Of a stretch of DNA of 64,000 nucleotides, positions 43,903 to 58,285 are shown piece by piece. Numbering within the stretch: position 1 is the stretch's first letter; each line of letters begins with the position of its first letter. A program made the position numbers and the translations under genes. This DNA is from Nesterenkonia marinintestina (GTDB taxonomy: Bacteria; Actinomycetota; Actinomycetes; Actinomycetales; Micrococcaceae): assembly GCF_025420485.1 (NCBI RefSeq), contig NZ_JAOEFD010000002.1, positions 124,001-188,000 of the forward strand, written 5' to 3'. Under the pieces are notes generated by a model. It worked only from the letters and a program-made list of their open reading frames with translations, ran no database searches and was not told where the DNA came from.

Positions 43903-43973
43903 GACCGTCATCTATGAGGGTGCGTCGGGCTTCCTCTAAGTCGAAGCCCGAACCACCCTCATAGATGACGGTC
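43903..43973. repeat. Palindromic intergenic repeat, copy 1
   Basis: Two 31-base arms (43903-43933 and 43943-43973) are inverted copies with only two mismatches around a 9-base loop. The right arm contains GAAGCCCGAACCACCCTCAT, which recurs exactly at 53882-53901. The element lies between two divergent genes, so it is not an ordinary terminator, and its right arm reaches the -35 region of the gene at 43999. Confidence 0.75.
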
Positions 43974-45789: not shown

Positions 45790-46833
45790 CTACCTGTGAC
45801 GCAGTGAGGCCGTCGCCAGCTCGCCGATGCCGACCTCGGGACCGACCGCGGCCTCGAACCCGAGCTCCTCGCGCGCGGCCTCGGGGCACGCCGCGACGTG
45901 CCGGACGTCGAAGGACCGGTGCTCGCCGGTGATCTCAGGCTCCGGGCCGCCCAGGACCTCGGACATCCGGGCCGCCATGTCACCGATGGTGAAGGTCCGT
46001 CCCGAGCAGACGTTGAACGCGCGAAGCCCGGGCGGTCCCGCGCCCACCGCCTCGACCGCAAGCACGTTCGCCCGGGCGATGTCGGCGACGTGGACGAAGT
46101 CGCGAAGCTGCCGTCCGTCCTCGAAGACCCGCGGTGCCTCGCCCCGCTCCAGCGCGGAGCGGAAGATGGCGGCCACCCCCGAATACGGGGTGTCCGCGGG
46201 CATTCCCGGACCGTAGGCGTTGTGGTACCGCAGGGCCACCGCGTGGGCCGACTCCAGGGTGCACCACGACGCGGTGTAGTGCTCCTGGGCGACCTTCGAG
46301 GCGGCATACCCGGATCGGGGCGCGAAGGGCGCGGACTCCTCGACCAGCCGCGGTGTGATCTCCCCGTCGCAGCGTGGGCAGCGGGGGTCGAAGCGGCCTC
46401 GGGCCAGATCGTCCGCCCGCCGGGGGGCCGGGGGTACGTCGCCGTCGCGGGGGCAGACGAATCGCCCCTCGCCGTAGACCACCACGGAGGAGGCCAGCAC
46501 CAGCCGCGACGTCCCGGCCCGGGCCATCGCAGCCAGAAGGGTCGCCGTCCCGTGGTCGTTGTGGGCGGCGTACCCCGGCAGATCCTGGGCGTCGACGCCG
46601 TTGCCCACCGACGCGGCCTGGTGGCAGACCACGTCGATGCCGCGGAGCAGCCGGTCCAGCAGAGCGGGGTCCCGGACGTCTCCTGCCACGACGCCCTCCG
46701 GCGACGTCGAGCCGTCGCCGTGGGCCTGGGGCAGCAGTGCGTCGACCCCCACGACCTCGTGCCCGGCCGTCCGCAGAGCACCGGCGATGTGGGACCCGAT
46801 GAAGCCGGCCGCCCCGGTCAGCAGCACCTTCAC
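45790..46833 (-). CDS. NAD-dependent epimerase/dehydratase (GalE3/Rv0536-like)
   Basis: A 347-residue extended SDR with the NAD motif GAAGFIGSH (7-15), catalytic Tyr176/Lys180 in SGYAASK and a Ser at 115-116. An inserted segment between the Rossmann and active-site parts carries a CPRC pair (152-155) that could bind zinc. It is the last gene of the minus-strand operon and its GTG overlaps the MTA phosphorylase stop (GTGA). In the mycobacterial methylthioxylose locus the matching gene is galE3 (Rv0536), expected to change the sugar configuration from ribo to xylo. The substrate here is inferred. Confidence 0.88.
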   Translation of the reverse strand: MKVLLTGAAGFIGSHIAGALRTAGHEVVGVDALLPQAHGDGSTSPEGVVAGDVRDPALLDRLLRGIDVVCHQAASVGNGVDAQDLPGYAAHNDHGTATLLAAMARAGTSRLVLASSVVVYGEGRFVCPRDGDVPPAPRRADDLARGRFDPRCPRCDGEITPRLVEESAPFAPRSGYAASKVAQEHYTASWCTLESAHAVALRYHNAYGPGMPADTPYSGVAAIFRSALERGEAPRVFEDGRQLRDFVHVADIARANVLAVEAVGAGPPGLRAFNVCSGRTFTIGDMAARMSEVLGGPEPEITGEHRSFDVRHVAACPEAAREELGFEAAVGPEVGIGELATASLRHR

Positions 46834-47645
46834 GGCAGCTCCAGCGGCAGGGACATGCCGGCCAGGGCCTCCGCGCAGGAGCAGCTGCGCTCGTCGGTGA
46901 GCGAGAGGACCACGGCGCTCAGACTCCGCTTCAGGTCCTCCGTGTGCTCGGAGAAGACCCGGAAGACCTCCGCCTGGTCCACCCCCTGCCCCGAGCTGAT
47001 GCCGGCGTCGAGGTCGGTGACCAGGGCCACGGCGGCGTAGCAGAGCTCGAGTTCGCGGGCCAAGGACGCCTCGGGCATCCCGGTCATGTTCACCAGGTCC
47101 CAGCCCTGACGGGCGTACCACCTCGACTCGGCACGGGTGGAGAACCTCGGGCCGTCGATCACCACCATGGTCCCGCCGTCCACCGGCGGGGTCCGCCCCT
47201 CGGCGAGACCCTCCAGCAGCGCGGTGCGCAGCCGCGGACAGTAGGGGTCGGCGAACGAGATGTGGCAGGCCCCGGCGTCGTAGTAGGTCTTCTCGCGCCC
47301 GGTGGTCCTGTCCACCAGCTGGTCCGGCACCACGAAGGAACCCGGACCCAGCCCGTCGTGCAGCCCGCCCACCGCGCACGGGGCCAGGACCTGGCGCACG
47401 CCCAGACTGCGAAGCGCCCACAGGTTGGCTCGGTGGTTGACCCGGTGCGCGGGGTGTTCGTGGCCCCGTCCGTGCCGGGGGAGGAACGCCACGGTGCGGC
47501 TGTCCCCTCCAGAGGTCAGCGTGCCCACGGCGATCGGCGCCGAGGGCCTGCCGTAGGGGGTCTCGAGGTCGAACTCCTGCGGATCCCGAAGGAACGTGTA
47601 GAAGCCGGAGCCGCCGATGACGGCGACCTCAGGCGTGGATGTCAT
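46830..47645 (-). CDS. mtnP: S-methyl-5'-thioadenosine phosphorylase
   Basis: A 271-residue PNP-superfamily enzyme with MTAP-type features: IGGSGFY, LPRHGRGHEHPAHRVNHRAN, PCAVGGL, DGPRFSTRAES and NMTGMPEASLARELELCYA, where the MTGMPEA form and following LVTDLDAG indicate MTA rather than general purine nucleosides. It would split methylthioadenosine to adenine and 5-methylthioribose 1-phosphate. Its ATG overlaps the methyltransferase stop (ATGA) and its stop overlaps the epimerase start. Its place inside a sugar-transfer operon suggests the methylthioribose 1-phosphate is kept for glycan synthesis. Mtb counterpart: Rv0535. Confidence 0.92.
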   Translation of the reverse strand: MTSTPEVAVIGGSGFYTFLRDPQEFDLETPYGRPSAPIAVGTLTSGGDSRTVAFLPRHGRGHEHPAHRVNHRANLWALRSLGVRQVLAPCAVGGLHDGLGPGSFVVPDQLVDRTTGREKTYYDAGACHISFADPYCPRLRTALLEGLAEGRTPPVDGGTMVVIDGPRFSTRAESRWYARQGWDLVNMTGMPEASLARELELCYAAVALVTDLDAGISSGQGVDQAEVFRVFSEHTEDLKRSLSAVVLSLTDERSCSCAEALAGMSLPLELP

Positions 47646-48295
47646 GATGCCTCCCTGCGGGTGAGCCGTGCCAGGTGCCGTCCCCCGAAACGGCGGATGT
47701 CGCAGCCGAGGAAGCCCGCCTCGGCCGCCACCGCGGCGACGGCGTCGACGCCCACCCAGGACCACGGAAGCGTCCCGGTGATCCGTCCCTGCACACGGAG
47801 TCTGATGACGTCGTGGACGACCCCGGTCCCGGGCCCGTCGACCTCGACCAGAGCCGTCCCCTCCGGACGCATGAGGTCGCGCAGCCGACGCAGCAGCCGG
47901 ACGGGGTCCCCGCCGATGCCGATGTTCCCGTCGGCCAGCAGCGTCTCCTGCCAGTCGCCCTCGGAGGGCACCTGACCGAAGACGTCCCGGCGGACCGCCG
48001 ACGCGCCGCGTTCCCGAGCCAGCCGCACGGCTTCGGGGGAGACGTCGAGGCCCAGCGCCGTGATGCCGCGGGTCGTCAGGGCTTCGGCGATGCGGCCGGC
48101 GCCGCAGCCGACGTCGAGGGTCGGGCCGGAGCAGGGGTCCACCAGCAGGTGGTGGTCGGCGGCATCGGGCATGCCGCTCCACCGCTGTATGTCCGCCGGG
48201 ACGAGGGAGCCGTCGGAGCGGAGGACTTCACAGGGCTGCCCGGCCAGGGCGGACTCCCAGGCGTCCAGGGGGCGCATACTGATCAGCTCGGTCAT
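47642..48295 (-). CDS. Class I SAM-dependent methyltransferase
   Basis: A 217-residue protein with the SAM motif LDVGCGAGRIAEAL (60-73), acidic loop LGLDVSPEAV and a middle segment ADGNIGIGGDPVRLLRRL, followed by LVEVDGPGTG and a WSWVGVDAV end. Methyltransferases of this type occur beside GT2 and DUF2064 genes in other actinobacteria. The substrate is not known; in this operon it could methylate a lipid-linked sugar or another group, and it makes no direct sense for making the methylthio group, which comes from MTA. It overlaps mtnP (ATGA) and is one base from the DUF2064 stop. Confidence 0.85.
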   Translation of the reverse strand: MTELISMRPLDAWESALAGQPCEVLRSDGSLVPADIQRWSGMPDAADHHLLVDPCSGPTLDVGCGAGRIAEALTTRGITALGLDVSPEAVRLARERGASAVRRDVFGQVPSEGDWQETLLADGNIGIGGDPVRLLRRLRDLMRPEGTALVEVDGPGTGVVHDVIRLRVQGRITGTLPWSWVGVDAVAAVAAEAGFLGCDIRRFGGRHLARLTRREAS

Positions 48296-48296
48296 G

Positions 48297-48968
48297 TCAG
48301 CCGGCCCACCTCTCGTGCTCGACGATGCGCAGCACCTCCGCGGCGAAGCGGCTCCGGGGGATGAGCTCCGCGACCGCGACCGCGTCCTCCCAGGTGTCGA
48401 CGTCGCGCAGGGCCGGCGCCGAACCGACGCTGGCACCCCGGCGGGCCAGCGCCTCGGAGGTCCGCGCGCCCGTCTCAGGATGAGACATGGGCACCGAGGT
48501 CAGACAGCGGGTCCACCCAGGCTCCCTGACGCCCAGGGCCCACCACCCGCCGTCCTCCGCGGGCCCGATCACGGCGTCGTGCGCCTCGAGCGACTCCGCC
48601 GTCGCCCGGAGGTGGGCGGTGGTGACCTGCGGTGTGTCCATCCCGATCTGCACCACTCCGCGGCCCTGGTCGGCATCGTGGTGGGCGGCGATCAGCCGGG
48701 CGGCGAAGTCTTCCCCGCGCTGGGAGATGACGCGGTGTCCTGCGCATGCGGTGATGAGCTCCTCGGCGCGTGCCCCGTCATGCAGATCCCCGGTGATCGC
48801 GACGACCACCGGCCATCCGAGCCCCTCGGCGACCTCTAGGGTGTCGAGCAGCGCCGCGGCGGCGAGCTGCGCGGCCGTCTCATCACCGACGGTCGCGGCG
48901 ACGCGAGACTTGGCCTGTCCGGGGATGGGCGCCTTGGCGACCACCAGCAGGCTGGCTGCGGCGCTCAT
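48297..48968 (-). CDS. DUF2064/TIGR04282 family protein (nucleotidyltransferase-like; Rv0540-like)
   Basis: A 223-residue GT-A-like fold protein: KAPIPGQAKSR (12-22) resembles the nucleotide-binding loop of sugar-phosphate nucleotidyltransferases such as CofC, GMDTPQV at 109-115 is the metal aspartate loop, and PAEDGGWWALGV follows. The family has unproven activity; activation of 5-methylthioribose 1-phosphate with NTP would suit its place. It overlaps the GT2 gene by ATGA. Mtb counterpart: Rv0540. Confidence 0.85.
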   Translation of the reverse strand: MSAAASLLVVAKAPIPGQAKSRVAATVGDETAAQLAAAALLDTLEVAEGLGWPVVVAITGDLHDGARAEELITACAGHRVISQRGEDFAARLIAAHHDADQGRGVVQIGMDTPQVTTAHLRATAESLEAHDAVIGPAEDGGWWALGVREPGWTRCLTSVPMSHPETGARTSEALARRGASVGSAPALRDVDTWEDAVAVAELIPRSRFAAEVLRIVEHERWAG

Positions 48969-49642
48969 CGCAGCACCTTGGCGAAGTCGATCAGCGTCCG
49001 GCAGGTCCCGCGGACCGAGCCCGAGACCTTGGAGCGGGTGCCGCGGGCACGTTCGGAGTAGACGACGTCGCGCTCGTGGACGGTCCATCCGGCGTCGGAG
49101 GCTTTGATCATCAGCTCCAGCGGGTAGCCGAAGCGTCGGTCGGCGACGCCGAGTGCCAGCAGGTCCTCACGCCGGCAGACGCGCATGGGTGCGAGGTCAT
49201 GGATGCCGAATCCGCTCCGGCGCCGGATCATCCAGGCCAGCGCCGCCGTCCCCGCCCGGGCGTGCCACGGCCAGACCCTGCTGTGCCGAGGTCTGCGGCG
49301 GCCGACCGCCATGGACGCCTCCCCGCGCGAGACCACTGCGACCAGTTCGCTGAGTTCGGCCGGATCCATCGACCCGTCGCCGTCGAGCACGGCGACCAGC
49401 GGGGCGGTCGCGGCGACCGTGCCGGCGTGGACCGCGGCCCCGTAGCCGGGCCGGGCCTCGAACACCACTTCGGCGCCCAGCTCCAGGGCGACGTCGGCGG
49501 TCCCGTCGGTGGAGCCGTTGTCCACCACGATCACGTGGAAGCCCTCCGGCATGGTGGCGAACACCGCAGGCAGGGCAGGTGCCTCATCGCGGCAGGGTAT
49601 GACCACATCACATGTCGGTCGGTCGCCGGGGGCACGGTACAT
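48965..49642 (-). CDS. Family 2 glycosyltransferase, polyprenyl-phosphate sugar synthase type (Rv0539/MtxS-like)
   Basis: A 225-residue soluble GT2 enzyme: VVIPCRDEAPALP, VVDNGSTDGT, a DGDGSMDP metal site (Asp87, Asp89) and the ending RRFGYPLELMIKA, with no C-terminal membrane helix. This is the dolichyl-phosphate mannose synthase-like class, which transfers a sugar to polyprenyl phosphate. In the mycobacterial methylthioxylose locus the equivalent Rv0539 (MtxS) makes the lipid-linked methylthioxylose donor. The ATG lies 6 bases after a TAGCAT box, so the operon message is probably leaderless. Confidence 0.85.
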   Translation of the reverse strand: MYRAPGDRPTCDVVIPCRDEAPALPAVFATMPEGFHVIVVDNGSTDGTADVALELGAEVVFEARPGYGAAVHAGTVAATAPLVAVLDGDGSMDPAELSELVAVVSRGEASMAVGRRRPRHSRVWPWHARAGTAALAWMIRRRSGFGIHDLAPMRVCRREDLLALGVADRRFGYPLELMIKASDAGWTVHERDVVYSERARGTRSKVSGSVRGTCRTLIDFAKVLR

Positions 49643-49648
49643 GGAGTG

Positions 49649-49654
49649 ATGCTA
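49649..49654 (-). promoter_or_regulatory. -10 box, leaderless promoter of the GT2-DUF2064-MTase-mtnP-epimerase operon
   Basis: TAGCAT on the minus strand ends 6 bases before ATG 49642. It is an exact mirror image of the box at 49664-49669; the two divergent promoters overlap in a 33-base intergenic gap and cannot be used by two polymerases at once. Confidence 0.6.
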
Positions 49655-49663
49655 CCAGCGGGA

Positions 49664-49669
49664 TAGCAT
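49664..49669 (+). promoter_or_regulatory. -10 box, leaderless promoter of the MtxT-like gene
   Basis: TAGCAT ends 6 bases before ATG 49676. Together with the opposite box it forms a palindrome (ATGCTA, 9 bases, TAGCAT) extended by TGGAG and TCCA on the sides. Confidence 0.6.
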
Positions 49670-49675
49670 GCTCCA

Positions 49676-51034
49676 ATGGGAGCCTCCACATCGCGGTCTC
49701 CGCGTCTGACCTGGGCGGCCGCATGGTCCGGTGTCCTCATCGGGGCGCTGCTGGTCGCCGCGGCGATCATCGTGCCGCGGGTGACGCCGATCGACGTGGC
49801 CATCGGCACCGGGGACTTCGACGACTGGAAGCCGCTGAAGGCCGCGTGGGAACCCGAGCTGACGCCCACGCTGCTGCTGCCGGTGGCGGTGGGTCTGCTG
49901 GGGTTCGTGCTGTGGCCCCGGCTCAGCCGCTCATCGACCTGGCCGCAGTTCCTCGCGCTGACCTTCGTCGGCTCCTGGCTGTGGACCGCCGCCCTGGGCC
50001 ACGTGGGAGGCGCCCAGGCCATCCGAAAGGTCTTCGACCGGGACAGCGAGTACTTCGTCGGCGCCAAAGAGGTCACCTCGATCCCGCAGTTCATGACCGA
50101 GTTCGTCGACCGCATCCCCAAGCACGTCGACGACAACTGGCCGATCCACATCGCCGGTCATCCCCCGGGCGCCACGCTGTTCTTCATCATGATGAACAGG
50201 ATGGGCGTCGAGGACCCGTACACGGCCGGCATGATCGTCATGACCCTGGGGTGCACGGCCGCCGTCGGCGTCGTCCTCACCGTCCGGACGCTGGCCTCGG
50301 AGCGGATGGCACGCCGCACCGCCCCCTGGGTGGTGGCCGCACCGTCCGCGATCTGGATGGGCGTCTCCGGAGATGCGCTCTTCACGGCCGTGGCGGCGTG
50401 GGGCCTGGCCCTGCTGGCCCTGTCGGCGACTGCGGAGCGACGGTCCCGACTGGTGGGCTTCGGACTGGGCTCCGGTCTGCTCCTGGGCCTCTGCGTCTAT
50501 CTCTCCTACGGGCTCGTGCTGCTGGGGGTGCTCGCGCTCGCCGTGCTCGTCCTGGGGCGCCGGTGGGCGGCCCTGCCGTGGGCGTTGGGCGGTGCGCTGC
50601 TGGTGGCCGCGGCGTTCACCCTGGCCGGATTCAGGTGGTGGGAGGCGTTCCCCGTCCTGGTGACCCGGTACTACGACGGGATCCAGAGCGACCGCCCGTA
50701 CGGCTACTGGGTGTGGGCGAACCTCGGGGTGTGGACCTTCAGCGCAGGGCTCGCCGTCTGGGCGGCCTTCGGCAGAGGTATCGCAGAGGTGCGGCGGCGT
50801 GCCGCGCCCGAGCGGTTCGCCCCGGCGGTCCTGGGATGGGCGGGCTTCGCCGCGATCCTGCTGGCCACGCTGTCCAGCATGAGCCAGGCGGAGATCGAAC
50901 GGATCTGGCTGCCCTTCACGATCTGGGTCCTGATCCTGCCGACCCTGTTGCCGGCCCACTGGCACAGACCGCTGATTGCCACCCAGATGGGGACGGCGAT
51001 CCTGATCGAACTGCTGTGGACCACGCAGTGGTGA
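49676..51034 (+). CDS. Polytopic membrane protein, putative methylthioxylose-type glycosyltransferase (Rv0541c/MtxT-like)
   Basis: A 452-residue protein with about 10-11 membrane helices and an external loop after the second helix region containing IGTGDFDDW, DRIPKHVDDNWPIHIAGHPP and a GATLFF helix start, a layout like GT-C glycosyltransferases that take sugars from polyprenyl phosphate outside the membrane. Late in the sequence, RIWLPFTIWVLILP and a Tyr/Arg loop (RYYDGIQSDRPYGYW) are conserved-looking. Length and synteny match Rv0541c (MtxT), which adds methylthioxylose to lipoarabinomannan in mycobacteria. Identity is inferred from context. Its stop overlaps the next GNAT gene (GTGA). Confidence 0.65.
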   Translation: MGASTSRSPRLTWAAAWSGVLIGALLVAAAIIVPRVTPIDVAIGTGDFDDWKPLKAAWEPELTPTLLLPVAVGLLGFVLWPRLSRSSTWPQFLALTFVGSWLWTAALGHVGGAQAIRKVFDRDSEYFVGAKEVTSIPQFMTEFVDRIPKHVDDNWPIHIAGHPPGATLFFIMMNRMGVEDPYTAGMIVMTLGCTAAVGVVLTVRTLASERMARRTAPWVVAAPSAIWMGVSGDALFTAVAAWGLALLALSATAERRSRLVGFGLGSGLLLGLCVYLSYGLVLLGVLALAVLVLGRRWAALPWALGGALLVAAAFTLAGFRWWEAFPVLVTRYYDGIQSDRPYGYWVWANLGVWTFSAGLAVWAAFGRGIAEVRRRAAPERFAPAVLGWAGFAAILLATLSSMSQAEIERIWLPFTIWVLILPTLLPAHWHRPLIATQMGTAILIELLWTTQW

Positions 51035-53784: not shown

Positions 53785-53850
53785 CGGTCCGCCGCCCTGA
53801 CCCGGGGCCGAGGGTCGTGGCACCCGTGGAGCAGATCTGACGGGGCTCCT

Positions 53851-53903
53851 CTATGACTACGGTTCGGGCTTCGCCTATGACGAAGCCCGAACCACCCTCA
53901 TAG
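53851..53903. repeat. Palindromic intergenic repeat, copy 2
   Basis: The arms 53851-53873 and 53881-53903 pair as 6 outer and 13 inner base pairs with a 4-base internal mismatch and a 7-base loop. The right arm shares CGAAGCCCGAACCACCCTCA with copy 1 at 43942-43961. Here the hairpin follows the DUF808 gene and could act as a terminator; the same sequence is between divergent genes at copy 1, so it is likely a dispersed element. Confidence 0.7.
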
Positions 53904-54030
53904 AAGAAGGCCGGCTGCGGCCGATGAGCCGACGGGCGAGGCGGCGGGGAGGAGCGCCGCGCGTCATCCGGTGTCAGAATATGTCCATGGACGCCGCGAG
54001 GCTTCGGAGCTCGACCGGACGGGCCCTCCG

Positions 54031-57214: not shown

Positions 57215-58285
57215 ATGAGCAACACGGAACGTCACCCGCAGGAGCACGTCTGTGAGAACCGCACCTATACCCGCGACGGGCTGAGTCCCGGCATCACCGT
57301 CGGGGAGAACACGGTGGAGGTCCTCGAGCCCCGGGAGGTCCCCCTGGGCGGTCCCCGGGCCATGGGAGTGCGCAGGACCCTGCCGCAGCGGGCCCGCTCG
57401 TTGGTCGGAGCCTGGTGCTTCCTGGACTTCTACGGACCCGACGACGTCGCCCGGACCGGCGGCATGGCGGTGCCTCGTCACCCGCACACGGGTCTGGCCA
57501 CGGTCTCCTGGCTGTTCTCCGGCGCCATCGACCACATCGATTCGGCCGGGAACTGGGCGCTGGTCCGTCCCGGCGACGCGGTGTTCATGAACGCCGGACG
57601 CGGCATCACCCACTCGGAGCACTCCACGGAGGAGACGACCGTGCTCCACGGGGCCCAGTTCTGGTACGCGCTGCCCCATGAGCATCGATTCGTCGCTCCT
57701 CACCTCGACATCCATCGTCCGGACCCCGTCGGCGGGGACGGATGGCAGGCGCGGGTGTTCGTCGGTGAGCTGCTCGGCGCCCGCTCCGAGATCCGCCCGT
57801 ACATCCCGCTCAGCGGCGCAGAGCTGAGGCTCGAGCCCGGCACCGTGCTGGACGTCGCGGTGCCCGCCGACCACGAGCACGCGCTGCTCCGCGTCGAGGG
57901 CGACGTCCGCTTCGAGGGGCAGCATCTGCCGGCCGACCACCTCGGCGTCGTCGACGTCGGACGGGACCGGCTGCGCATCGAGGCCGGGGACGAACCCGTC
58001 CTCGCGCTGCTCTTCGGCGGGGAGCCCCTCGACGAGCAGATCGTCATGTGGTGGAACTTCGTGGGCCGCAGCCACGAGGACATCGTCGCCTACAGGGCCG
58101 CCTACCAGGCCGAGATGGGGTTCGAGGCGCCGCTCGACGACCATGACGGCACAGCCGGCACAGCCGGCACGGCCGGCACAGCCGGCTCAGCCGCAGACCC
58201 ACAGTTCGGCGACTTCCCCTCCCACGCAGAGGCGCCGCTGCCCGCCCCGCAGATGCCCGGCACCCGGCTCAAGCCGCGGAGGTGA
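57215..58285 (+). CDS. Pirin family protein
   Basis: A 356-residue bicupin. The N-terminal cupin has PRHPHTGLATVSWLF with the usual iron histidines, GDAVFMNAGRGITHSEHS and a conserved Glu; the C-terminal cupin is PYIPLSGAELRLEPG to EPVLALLFGGEPLDE. Pirins may be quercetinases or regulators of metabolism; the role here is unknown. The tail contains four TAG repeats encoded by a 9-base tandem repeat. ATG 57215 has GAGGAGG upstream; the stop overlaps the TRIC-like start (GTGA). Confidence 0.92.
   Translation: MSNTERHPQEHVCENRTYTRDGLSPGITVGENTVEVLEPREVPLGGPRAMGVRRTLPQRARSLVGAWCFLDFYGPDDVARTGGMAVPRHPHTGLATVSWLFSGAIDHIDSAGNWALVRPGDAVFMNAGRGITHSEHSTEETTVLHGAQFWYALPHEHRFVAPHLDIHRPDPVGGDGWQARVFVGELLGARSEIRPYIPLSGAELRLEPGTVLDVAVPADHEHALLRVEGDVRFEGQHLPADHLGVVDVGRDRLRIEAGDEPVLALLFGGEPLDEQIVMWWNFVGRSHEDIVAYRAAYQAEMGFEAPLDDHDGTAGTAGTAGTAGSAADPQFGDFPSHAEAPLPAPQMPGTRLKPRR
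58151..58186. repeat. Four tandem 9-base units in the pirin gene
   Basis: The unit ACAGCCGGC is repeated four times (one unit has G for A) and encodes Thr-Ala-Gly four times. The frame is kept whatever the copy number, so length variation between strains would be tolerated. Confidence 0.75.

What the first reader, a model, noticed from the sequence alone, without database searches (positions are those of the whole stretch)
45790..51034. Methylthiopentose (methylthioxylose-like) glycan locus outside mycobacteria
Seen: five overlapping minus-strand genes (GT2 polyprenyl-phosphate sugar synthase type, DUF2064, methyltransferase, MTA phosphorylase, NAD epimerase) diverge from a 452-residue polytopic membrane protein. 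Known (from memory): Mycobacterium tuberculosis caps lipoarabinomannan with 5-methylthio-D-xylose, using Rv0535 (MTA phosphorylase), Rv0536 (GalE3), Rv0539 (MtxS), Rv0540 (DUF2064) and Rv0541c (MtxT). All five types are here with similar lengths. Inference: this bacterium converts MTA to 5-methylthioribose 1-phosphate, activates and epimerises it, loads it on polyprenyl phosphate and transfers it to an envelope glycan such as lipomannan. MTA would be used for glycan decoration rather than only recycled.
Basis: partly seen in the sequence, partly recalled or inferred. Interest (0 to 1): 0.85.

Follow-up and report, generated by a model that had tools for sequence, protein, structure and literature searches.

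The report
Actinobacterial methylthio-sugar envelope gene cassette
Six clustered genes in this bacterium include close relatives of the gene set with which slow-growing mycobacteria are thought to put a sulfur-bearing sugar on their surface; the set proves to be a widespread, sometimes plasmid-borne cassette of actinomycetes, often with an added methyltransferase and molybdenum enzyme.

Summary
In detail: five minus-strand genes (GT2, DUF2064, methyltransferase, MTA phosphorylase, epimerase) diverge from a 452-aa membrane protein whose model has a GT-C fold. The five types matched to Rv0535/0536/0539/0540/0541c are 36-60% identical to the corresponding locus of six named mycobacteria; M. tuberculosis itself could not be compared. 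'Outside mycobacteria' undersells it: the membrane protein family has matches in 148 of 394 genomes of the class, GT2 accompanies it in most neighbourhoods fetched, and cassettes lie on Rhodococcus and Arthrobacter plasmids. Many carry a methyltransferase, a fused haem-molybdenum protein of Sco3746 type and a two-component system; the window has only the methyltransferase. In the window's genus MTA phosphorylase occurs only in the four cassette-bearing genomes of 30; MTR-1-P isomerase was not found. Best reading: MTA-derived 5-methylthiopentose is loaded on polyprenyl phosphate and transferred outside the membrane. Sugar, acceptor and methyltransferase role are unproven. Against literal MTX-on-LAM: the MTX epitope was undetectable in fast growers and other actinomycetes tested, and 8 of 80 genomes with a strong membrane-protein match lack the phosphorylase.

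The parts
45790..46833 (-). NAD-dependent NDP-sugar epimerase (EPI), counterpart of the GalE3/Rv0536-type gene
   Evidence: PF01370 164 bits; 55-59% identity to the epimerase of the Mycobacterium loci; Y176/K180 among near-invariant residues
46830..47645 (-). S-methyl-5'-thioadenosine phosphorylase (MTAP), counterpart of Rv0535
   Evidence: NF005876 412 vs 306 bits, TIGR01694 295 vs 275; best PDB relatives are MTA phosphorylases, E 9e-64; D211/D213 near-invariant
47642..48295 (-). class I SAM-dependent methyltransferase, extra to the slow-grower MTX-type locus
   Evidence: PF08241/PF13649 over cut-off; homologues in 32 of 37 chosen loci; found in 7 of 80 named mycobacterial loci
48297..48968 (-). 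DUF2064 / CofC-like predicted nucleotidyltransferase, counterpart of Rv0540
   Evidence: PF09837 100 bits; TIGR04282 128 vs cut-off 134; present in 37 of 37 chosen loci
48965..49642 (-). GT2 polyprenyl-phosphate sugar synthase type, counterpart of MtxS/Rv0539
   Evidence: PF00535 71 bits; D87/D89 near-invariant; 55-58% identity to the six named Mycobacterium loci; tree
49643..49675 (.). 33-nt divergent intergenic gap between the two transcription units
   Evidence: coordinates
49676..51034 (+). polytopic GT-C glycosyltransferase, counterpart of MtxT/Rv0541c

Best explanation
The cassette diverts 5'-methylthioadenosine (MTA) into an envelope sugar. Inferred route: MTAP (46830-47645) phosphorolyses MTA to 5-methylthioribose-1-phosphate; DUF2064 (48297-48968) activates it to an NDP sugar; the epimerase (45790-46833) changes its configuration, probably ribo to xylo; the GT2 enzyme (48965-49642) moves it to polyprenyl phosphate; after flipping, the GT-C protein (49676-51034) transfers the 5-methylthiopentose to an extracytoplasmic glycan, possibly a lipomannan. 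The extra methyltransferase (47642-48295) probably methylates the sugar again, so the product is an MTX relative rather than MTX itself. Shown here: the genes, families, the GT-C fold of the model, homology and synteny with the mycobacterial MTX-type locus, co-occurrence with MTAP, and no match to the MTR-1-P isomerase family in this genome. Inferred: every catalytic step here, the sugar, the acceptor and the methyltransferase role. In many relatives the cassette also includes a fused cytochrome-b/molybdenum oxidoreductase that I propose acts on the methylthio/sulfoxide pair; the window genome has no close relative of it.
Against: 35 of 148 genomes with any membrane-protein match (E<=1e-3), and 8 of 80 with a strong one (E<=1e-60), have no MTAP at E<=1e-60; of those eight, L054, L062, L063 and L066 keep GT2, DUF2064 and EPI, so the sugar must come by another route there. 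S4-20 was not detectable in M. fortuitum, M. smegmatis, M. abscessus, M. chelonae, Gordonia, Nocardia, Rhodococcus or Tsukamurella. MtnA absence does not discriminate: MtnA in 35 of 107 membrane-protein+MTAP genomes and 27 of 67 with MTAP but no membrane protein. Rv0535-Rv0541c were not compared directly. I found no chemistry for this organism.
Confidence: 0.72

Rival explanations
1. The same pathway logic with a different sugar: the phosphorylase and DUF2064/GT2 pair handle another 5'-modified or O-methylated pentose, as in arsenosugar-type pathways, and the methyltransferase supplies the characteristic group.
For: DUF2064 scores just under TIGR04282, 'arsenosugar biosynthesis' (128 vs 134); 32 of 37 chosen loci have the methyltransferase; cassettes without MTAP exist; no MTX epitope in the fast growers and other actinomycetes tested.
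Against: The phosphorylase is squarely in the MTA family and is in the operon here; the five shared types match the locus of slow growers, several of which react with the MTX antibody.
Confidence: 0.2
2. The sugar is attached to something other than a lipomannan-type envelope glycan: a teichoic-type polymer, a glycoprotein or a secreted metabolite.
Against: The mycobacterial relative acts on lipoglycan mannose; the window genome has two MptB-family mannosyltransferases. A shared fold does not fix the acceptor.
Confidence: 0.25
3. Ordinary MTA disposal: MTAP only recycles adenine and sits beside unrelated glycosylation genes.
For: MTAP is common (180 of 394 genomes at E<=1e-60) and can lie on another contig than the membrane gene, as in G277.
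Against: 4-nt overlaps with both neighbours; presence tracks the cassette in this genus; MTAP lies within the cassette on Rhodococcus and Arthrobacter plasmids; no MtnA match.
Confidence: 0.06

Closest known systems
MTX pathway of M. tuberculosis LAM (Rv0535, Rv0536, Rv0539/MtxS, Rv0540, Rv0541c/MtxT; Angala et al. 2017, not held, seen only as cited)
   Same: All five types present, over most of their length, and in the recalled order in named mycobacteria; GT-C fold; MTA family phosphorylase.
   Different: Genes are in one operon plus a divergent gene, without the two interposed genes of the mycobacterial locus; an extra methyltransferase; sequence closest to the f45 lineage, not mycobacteria; product and acceptor unknown.
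Sco3746 family of fused haem b-molybdenum cofactor membrane proteins (Tooke et al. 2017, PMC5449189, passages seen)
   Same: The MoO protein of related cassettes has the described plan: twin arginine just before the last helix, three conserved histidines, SO-family domain, Tat domain over cut-off in the Arthrobacter protein.
   Different: The passages seen give no function; here it is linked to a methylthio-sugar cassette. The window genome has no close relative (best 67 bits vs 457 and 486 for the two clear members among 58 genomes).
MsrPQ periplasmic methionine sulfoxide reductase
   Same: Haem membrane part plus exported molybdenum domain acting on a sulfoxide, as an analogy.
   Different: MsrP model score 22 and 29 bits vs cut-off 207: not a member.
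Arsenosugar-type TIGR04282/TIGR04283 pathway
   Same: Nucleoside phosphorylase, DUF2064 and GT2 logic (pathway parallel recalled).
   Different: TIGR04282 just below cut-off, TIGR04283 38 vs 182 bits; no gene annotated for arsenic, apart from the TIGR04282 name itself, in the plasmid neighbourhoods.

Membership tests
MTX biosynthesis pathway | MTA phosphorylase | tested here: met
   NF005876 412 vs 306 bits; PDB best hits MTA phosphorylases
MTX biosynthesis pathway | GT2 polyprenyl-phosphate synthase orthologous to MtxS | tested here: met
   55-58% identity to the gene at the MtxS position in six named mycobacteria; tree. Rv0539 itself not compared; whole-genome reciprocal search not done
MTX biosynthesis pathway | GT-C transferase orthologous to MtxT | tested here: met
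   36-43% identity with shared signature; GT-C fold. Rv0541c itself not compared
MTX biosynthesis pathway | DUF2064 and GalE-type epimerase in the locus | tested here: met
MTX biosynthesis pathway | direct match to M. tuberculosis Rv0535-Rv0541c | tested here: inconclusive
MTX biosynthesis pathway | 5-methylthio-xylofuranose on a mannan in this organism | not testable with these tools
   needs NMR/LC-MS
GT-C superfamily | GT-C transmembrane fold | tested here: met
Pfam GT87 | score over the gathering threshold | tested here: not met
   22.8 vs 25 bits; the GT-C of the Arthrobacter plasmid scores 46
TIGR04282 arsenosugar-type nucleotidyltransferase | score over cut-off | tested here: not met
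   127.9 vs 134 bits
MsrP (for the MoO of relatives) | score over NF003767 cut-off | tested here: not met
   22 and 29 vs 207 bits for the two proteins scanned
Sco3746-type haem-Mo protein (for the MoO of relatives) | twin arginine before the last TM helix, conserved TM histidines, C-terminal Mo domain | tested here: met
   R210/R211, H75, H147, H161, C306 near-invariant in 22 rows; PF00174 86 bits; TIGR01409 20.6 vs 16.7. Not compared with the Sco3746 sequence itself

The most novel reading that the evidence does not exclude
The 'hallmark' methylthioxylose of tuberculosis-type LAM comes from a stripped branch of a widespread, mobile actinomycete cassette. The fuller cassette makes a further-methylated 5-methylthiopentose, controls it with its own two-component system, and keeps its sulfur reduced (or switches it) with a dedicated exported haem-molybdenum enzyme of the Sco3746 family, for which I saw no assigned function: a reversible redox decoration of the cell surface. 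The window's genus took the six-gene form horizontally from an f45-type lineage.
Probability: 0.4. Interest if true: 0.8.

Novelty: new variant of a known kind. Interest (0 to 1): 0.62.

Why it matters
MTX is used as a target for tuberculosis diagnosis (PMC6258851) and its biological significance is described as largely unknown (PMC9751131). If homologous cassettes with a methyltransferase and a molybdenum oxidoreductase are spread over soil actinomycetes and plasmids, the sugar's role can be studied in harmless laboratory species, the specificity of MTX-based diagnostics gets a genomic basis, and the Tat-exported Sco3746 family gets a first testable function. MTX sulfoxide (MSX) does occur beside MTX in LAM (PMC8531672), and the title of a cited paper names a carbohydrate substrate of M. 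tuberculosis MsrA (reference list), so a sulfoxide enzyme for this sugar is chemically reasonable.

Tried and rejected
Tried without result: viral-contig search for the membrane protein (none of 9 candidate stretches confirmed); Rfam and tRNA scans of the window (none); PDB profile search with the membrane protein alignment (none); Foldseek for it gave no E<=0.001, VIA-align did better. The MoO model was poor (pLDDT 58, pTM 0.41) and was not used for a fold search; only its five long helices and mixed C-terminal domain are noted. No fold job was run for the methyltransferase, the epimerase, DUF2064 or GT2.

Considered and rejected: MtnA absence as proof that MTA is routed to glycan (35 of 107 vs 27 of 67: not discriminating). 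Filing the MoO as MsrP (far under cut-off). Calling the locus exclusive to the window's genus or to mycobacteria. Distant membrane-protein hits, for example L079 in f36, are probably other GT-C proteins: that locus has no GT2, DUF2064, MT or MTAP match.

Limits: neighbourhood counts use my simple GC3-based gene caller and loci mostly chosen because the membrane protein is there, so they do not estimate prevalence; the regulator and kinase clusters may hold unrelated pairs (L068 has two). Absence of MT, MoO or regulators in mycobacterial loci refers to the stretches held, not to whole genomes. Which named mycobacteria are slow growers is my knowledge, except those flagged. The window's own genus was not named. 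Gene order Rv0535-Rv0541c is recalled, with rv0536/galE3 and its position confirmed in PMC9765663. The ACS Chem Biol 2017 paper was not held, so a statement there on wider distribution cannot be excluded; searches that could have shown such a statement were made, and of the papers they listed I saw passages of only some.
Full report
What is there. The window (G000:C12:124001-188000 of a 2.58-Mb, 37-contig genome) holds, at 45790-51034, five co-directional minus-strand genes and one divergent plus-strand gene, as reported. Three junctions overlap by 4 nt, one has a 1-nt gap, and the divergent gap is 33 nt. Families are clear for five of the six: GT2, DUF2064, class I methyltransferase, MTA phosphorylase (over its equivalog cut-off, 412 vs 306 bits) and NDP-sugar epimerase. 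The membrane protein is sub-threshold for GT87.

Relation to the MTX locus. Papers seen in passages state that MtxS (Rv0539) forms MTX-P-C50 and MtxT (Rv0541c) transfers it to mannoside caps (PMC8780516) and that the donor route starts from MTA and ends with a GT-C enzyme (PMC11127046). The genome-contig scan found 438 relatives of a mycobacterial query; the best 80 are Mycobacterium or Mycolicibacterium records. M. gastri, M. persicum, M. szulgai, M. gordonae, M. asiaticum and M. uberis carry MTAP, EPI, GT2, DUF2064 and the membrane protein in the recalled Rv0535-Rv0541c order; window identities are 57-60, 55-59, 55-58, 48-52 and 36-43%. M. gordonae, M. intracellulare, M. kansasii and, barely, M. 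avium react with the MTX-dependent antibody S4-20; M. fortuitum, M. smegmatis, M. abscessus, M. chelonae and four other actinomycete genera do not at the dilutions tested (PMC6258851 section 14).

Distribution. Within the genus the membrane protein is in 4 of 30 genomes, and MTAP tracks it: 3 of those 4 are over cut-off, the fourth (G026) is split over contig ends, and the other 26 give only 27-61-bit hits or, in G017, none. Over 394 genomes of the class, 148 have a membrane-protein match at E<=1e-3; 35 of these lack MTAP. At E<=1e-20, 107 genomes have it with MTAP, 17 without, 73 have MTAP only and 197 neither (relatedness not corrected). At E<=1e-60 eight of 80 lack MTAP, all in families f35 and f58. 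In a genus identified as Mycobacterium, 297 of 396 genomes have it, and two 3.3-Mb single-contig genomes have only decayed pieces with stops.

The cassette. In 43 neighbourhoods examined (chosen mostly for the membrane protein, which clusters in 41) my clustering counts GT2 in 36, EPI 32, DUF2064 32, MT 28, fused MoO 23, response regulator 21, histidine kinase cluster 20 and MTAP 17; split MoO genes, as in L048 and L068, are not counted. Named plasmids carry it: Mycobacteroides abscessus subsp. bolletii (kinase, regulator, GT2, DUF2064, MT, MoO, small protein, membrane protein; no MTAP or EPI there), Rhodococcus AQ5-07 (all genes but the regulators), Arthrobacter U41 conjugative plasmid, Kitasatospora NBC_00039 and an unannotated Streptomyces BHT-5-2 replicon (no MTAP seen in the stretch). 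On the Arthrobacter and Kitasatospora plasmids the window's membrane protein finds no match; Arthrobacter has a GT87 protein in its place (46 bits). On the Arthrobacter plasmid the eight genes lie between two 893-nt, 100% identical inverted repeats 7,632 nt apart. Of 84 named loci (80 and four plasmids), 11 have MT and 10 have MoO: all four plasmids have both, as do M. vinylchloridicum, M. wolinskyi and four further mycobacterial records; one MAG locus (L176) has MT only; the other 73 mycobacterial loci, among them M. gordonae and the M. kansasii-group species, show neither in the stretch held. L056-L058 of this type show no regulator pair either. So the pathogen-type MTX locus looks like a reduced form, although loss there versus gain elsewhere was not formally tested.

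The molybdenum protein. MoO has a C-terminal sulfite-oxidase-family domain (PF00174, 86 bits) and a cytochrome-b561-like N-terminal membrane part (the latter under cut-off), invariant CVEGWS, three conserved histidines and a twin arginine before the last helix, with a Tat domain over cut-off in the Arthrobacter protein. This is the plan described for Sco3746, shown to be Tat-dependent and noted as a distant fusion relative of MsrP/MsrQ, with no function given in the passages I saw (PMC5449189). SCO3740/SCO3741 are a kinase/regulator pair (PMC9739842); counting along the Streptomyces-like order kinase, regulator, GT2, DUF2064, MT, small membrane protein, MoO, membrane protein (L051) puts Sco3746 at the MoO position (inference by counting). 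Methylsulfoxyxylose occurs beside MTX in LAM (PMC8531672). Hence my proposal that MoO acts on the methylthio/sulfoxide pair. It is far below the MsrP cut-off, and reduction versus oxidation cannot be told. Among 58 relatives of the window, clear MoO occurs in two (486 and 457 bits), both beside cassette genes (L011, L111), and the window genome's best score is 67 bits.

Origin of the window cassette. GT2 (46 rows) and EPI (38 rows) trees both put the window genus next to f45 genomes of L042-L046 (GT2 support 91/82, below the 95/80 mark; EPI 100/99, without L042), while G035 of the window's own family groups with the Arthrobacter plasmid (GT2 87/85, EPI 100/91). With presence in 4 of 30 congeners this suggests horizontal gain, but loss cannot be excluded. 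In G008 and G025 a pirin gene lies next to the cassette; the window has the same family 6 kb away at 57215-58285, so the site may be shared.

Mechanism and doubt. The simplest reading is MTA to 5-methylthioribose-1-phosphate, activation by DUF2064, epimerisation, loading on polyprenyl phosphate and GT-C transfer outside. MtnA was not found here, but MtnA absence does not separate cassette genomes from others. Two MptB-type proteins leave lipomannan possible as acceptor. The methyltransferase, the MTAP-less cassettes and the negative antibody data together warn that the sugar need not be MTX itself.

Noticed in passing
L099:1691-2583 and L099:10216-11108: Two identical 893-nt inverted repeats, each with the same 228-aa hypothetical ORF, bracket the eight-gene cassette on the conjugative Arthrobacter U41 plasmid, with transposases on one side outside: a composite-element-like arrangement.
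   Followed up: partly
G505:C1:2456972-2457892 and G540:C1:2680324-2681225: Decayed copies of the membrane gene with several stops in two 3.3-Mb single-contig Mycobacterium genomes, reminiscent of leprosy-type genome reduction.
   Followed up: no
window 43903-43973 and 53847-53913: A strong 31-nt-arm palindrome and a 79%-identical copy 9.9 kb away, one on each side of the cassette region; perhaps an interspersed palindromic repeat or terminator of this genome.
   Followed up: no
L054, L062, L063, L066: Cassettes of families f35 and f58 keep GT2, DUF2064 and EPI while no MTAP is found in the genome at E<=1e-60: an unknown source of the sugar phosphate.
   Followed up: partly
L057:12042-15821: Loci of the MTX type have two extra genes between EPI and GT2: a 606-aa protein without a Pfam match and a DUF7937 protein, at the positions recalled for Rv0538 and Rv0537c.
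   Followed up: no
L197 and L198 (G000:C1:78219-81126): Two adjacent MptB-family mannosyltransferase genes (106 bits each, cut-off 40) in the window's genome.
   Followed up: no
L097:8547-9209: The DUF2064 gene of the cassette is annotated in a public record as an 'arsenosugar biosynthesis glycosyltransferase', probably a misleading transferred name.
   Followed up: no
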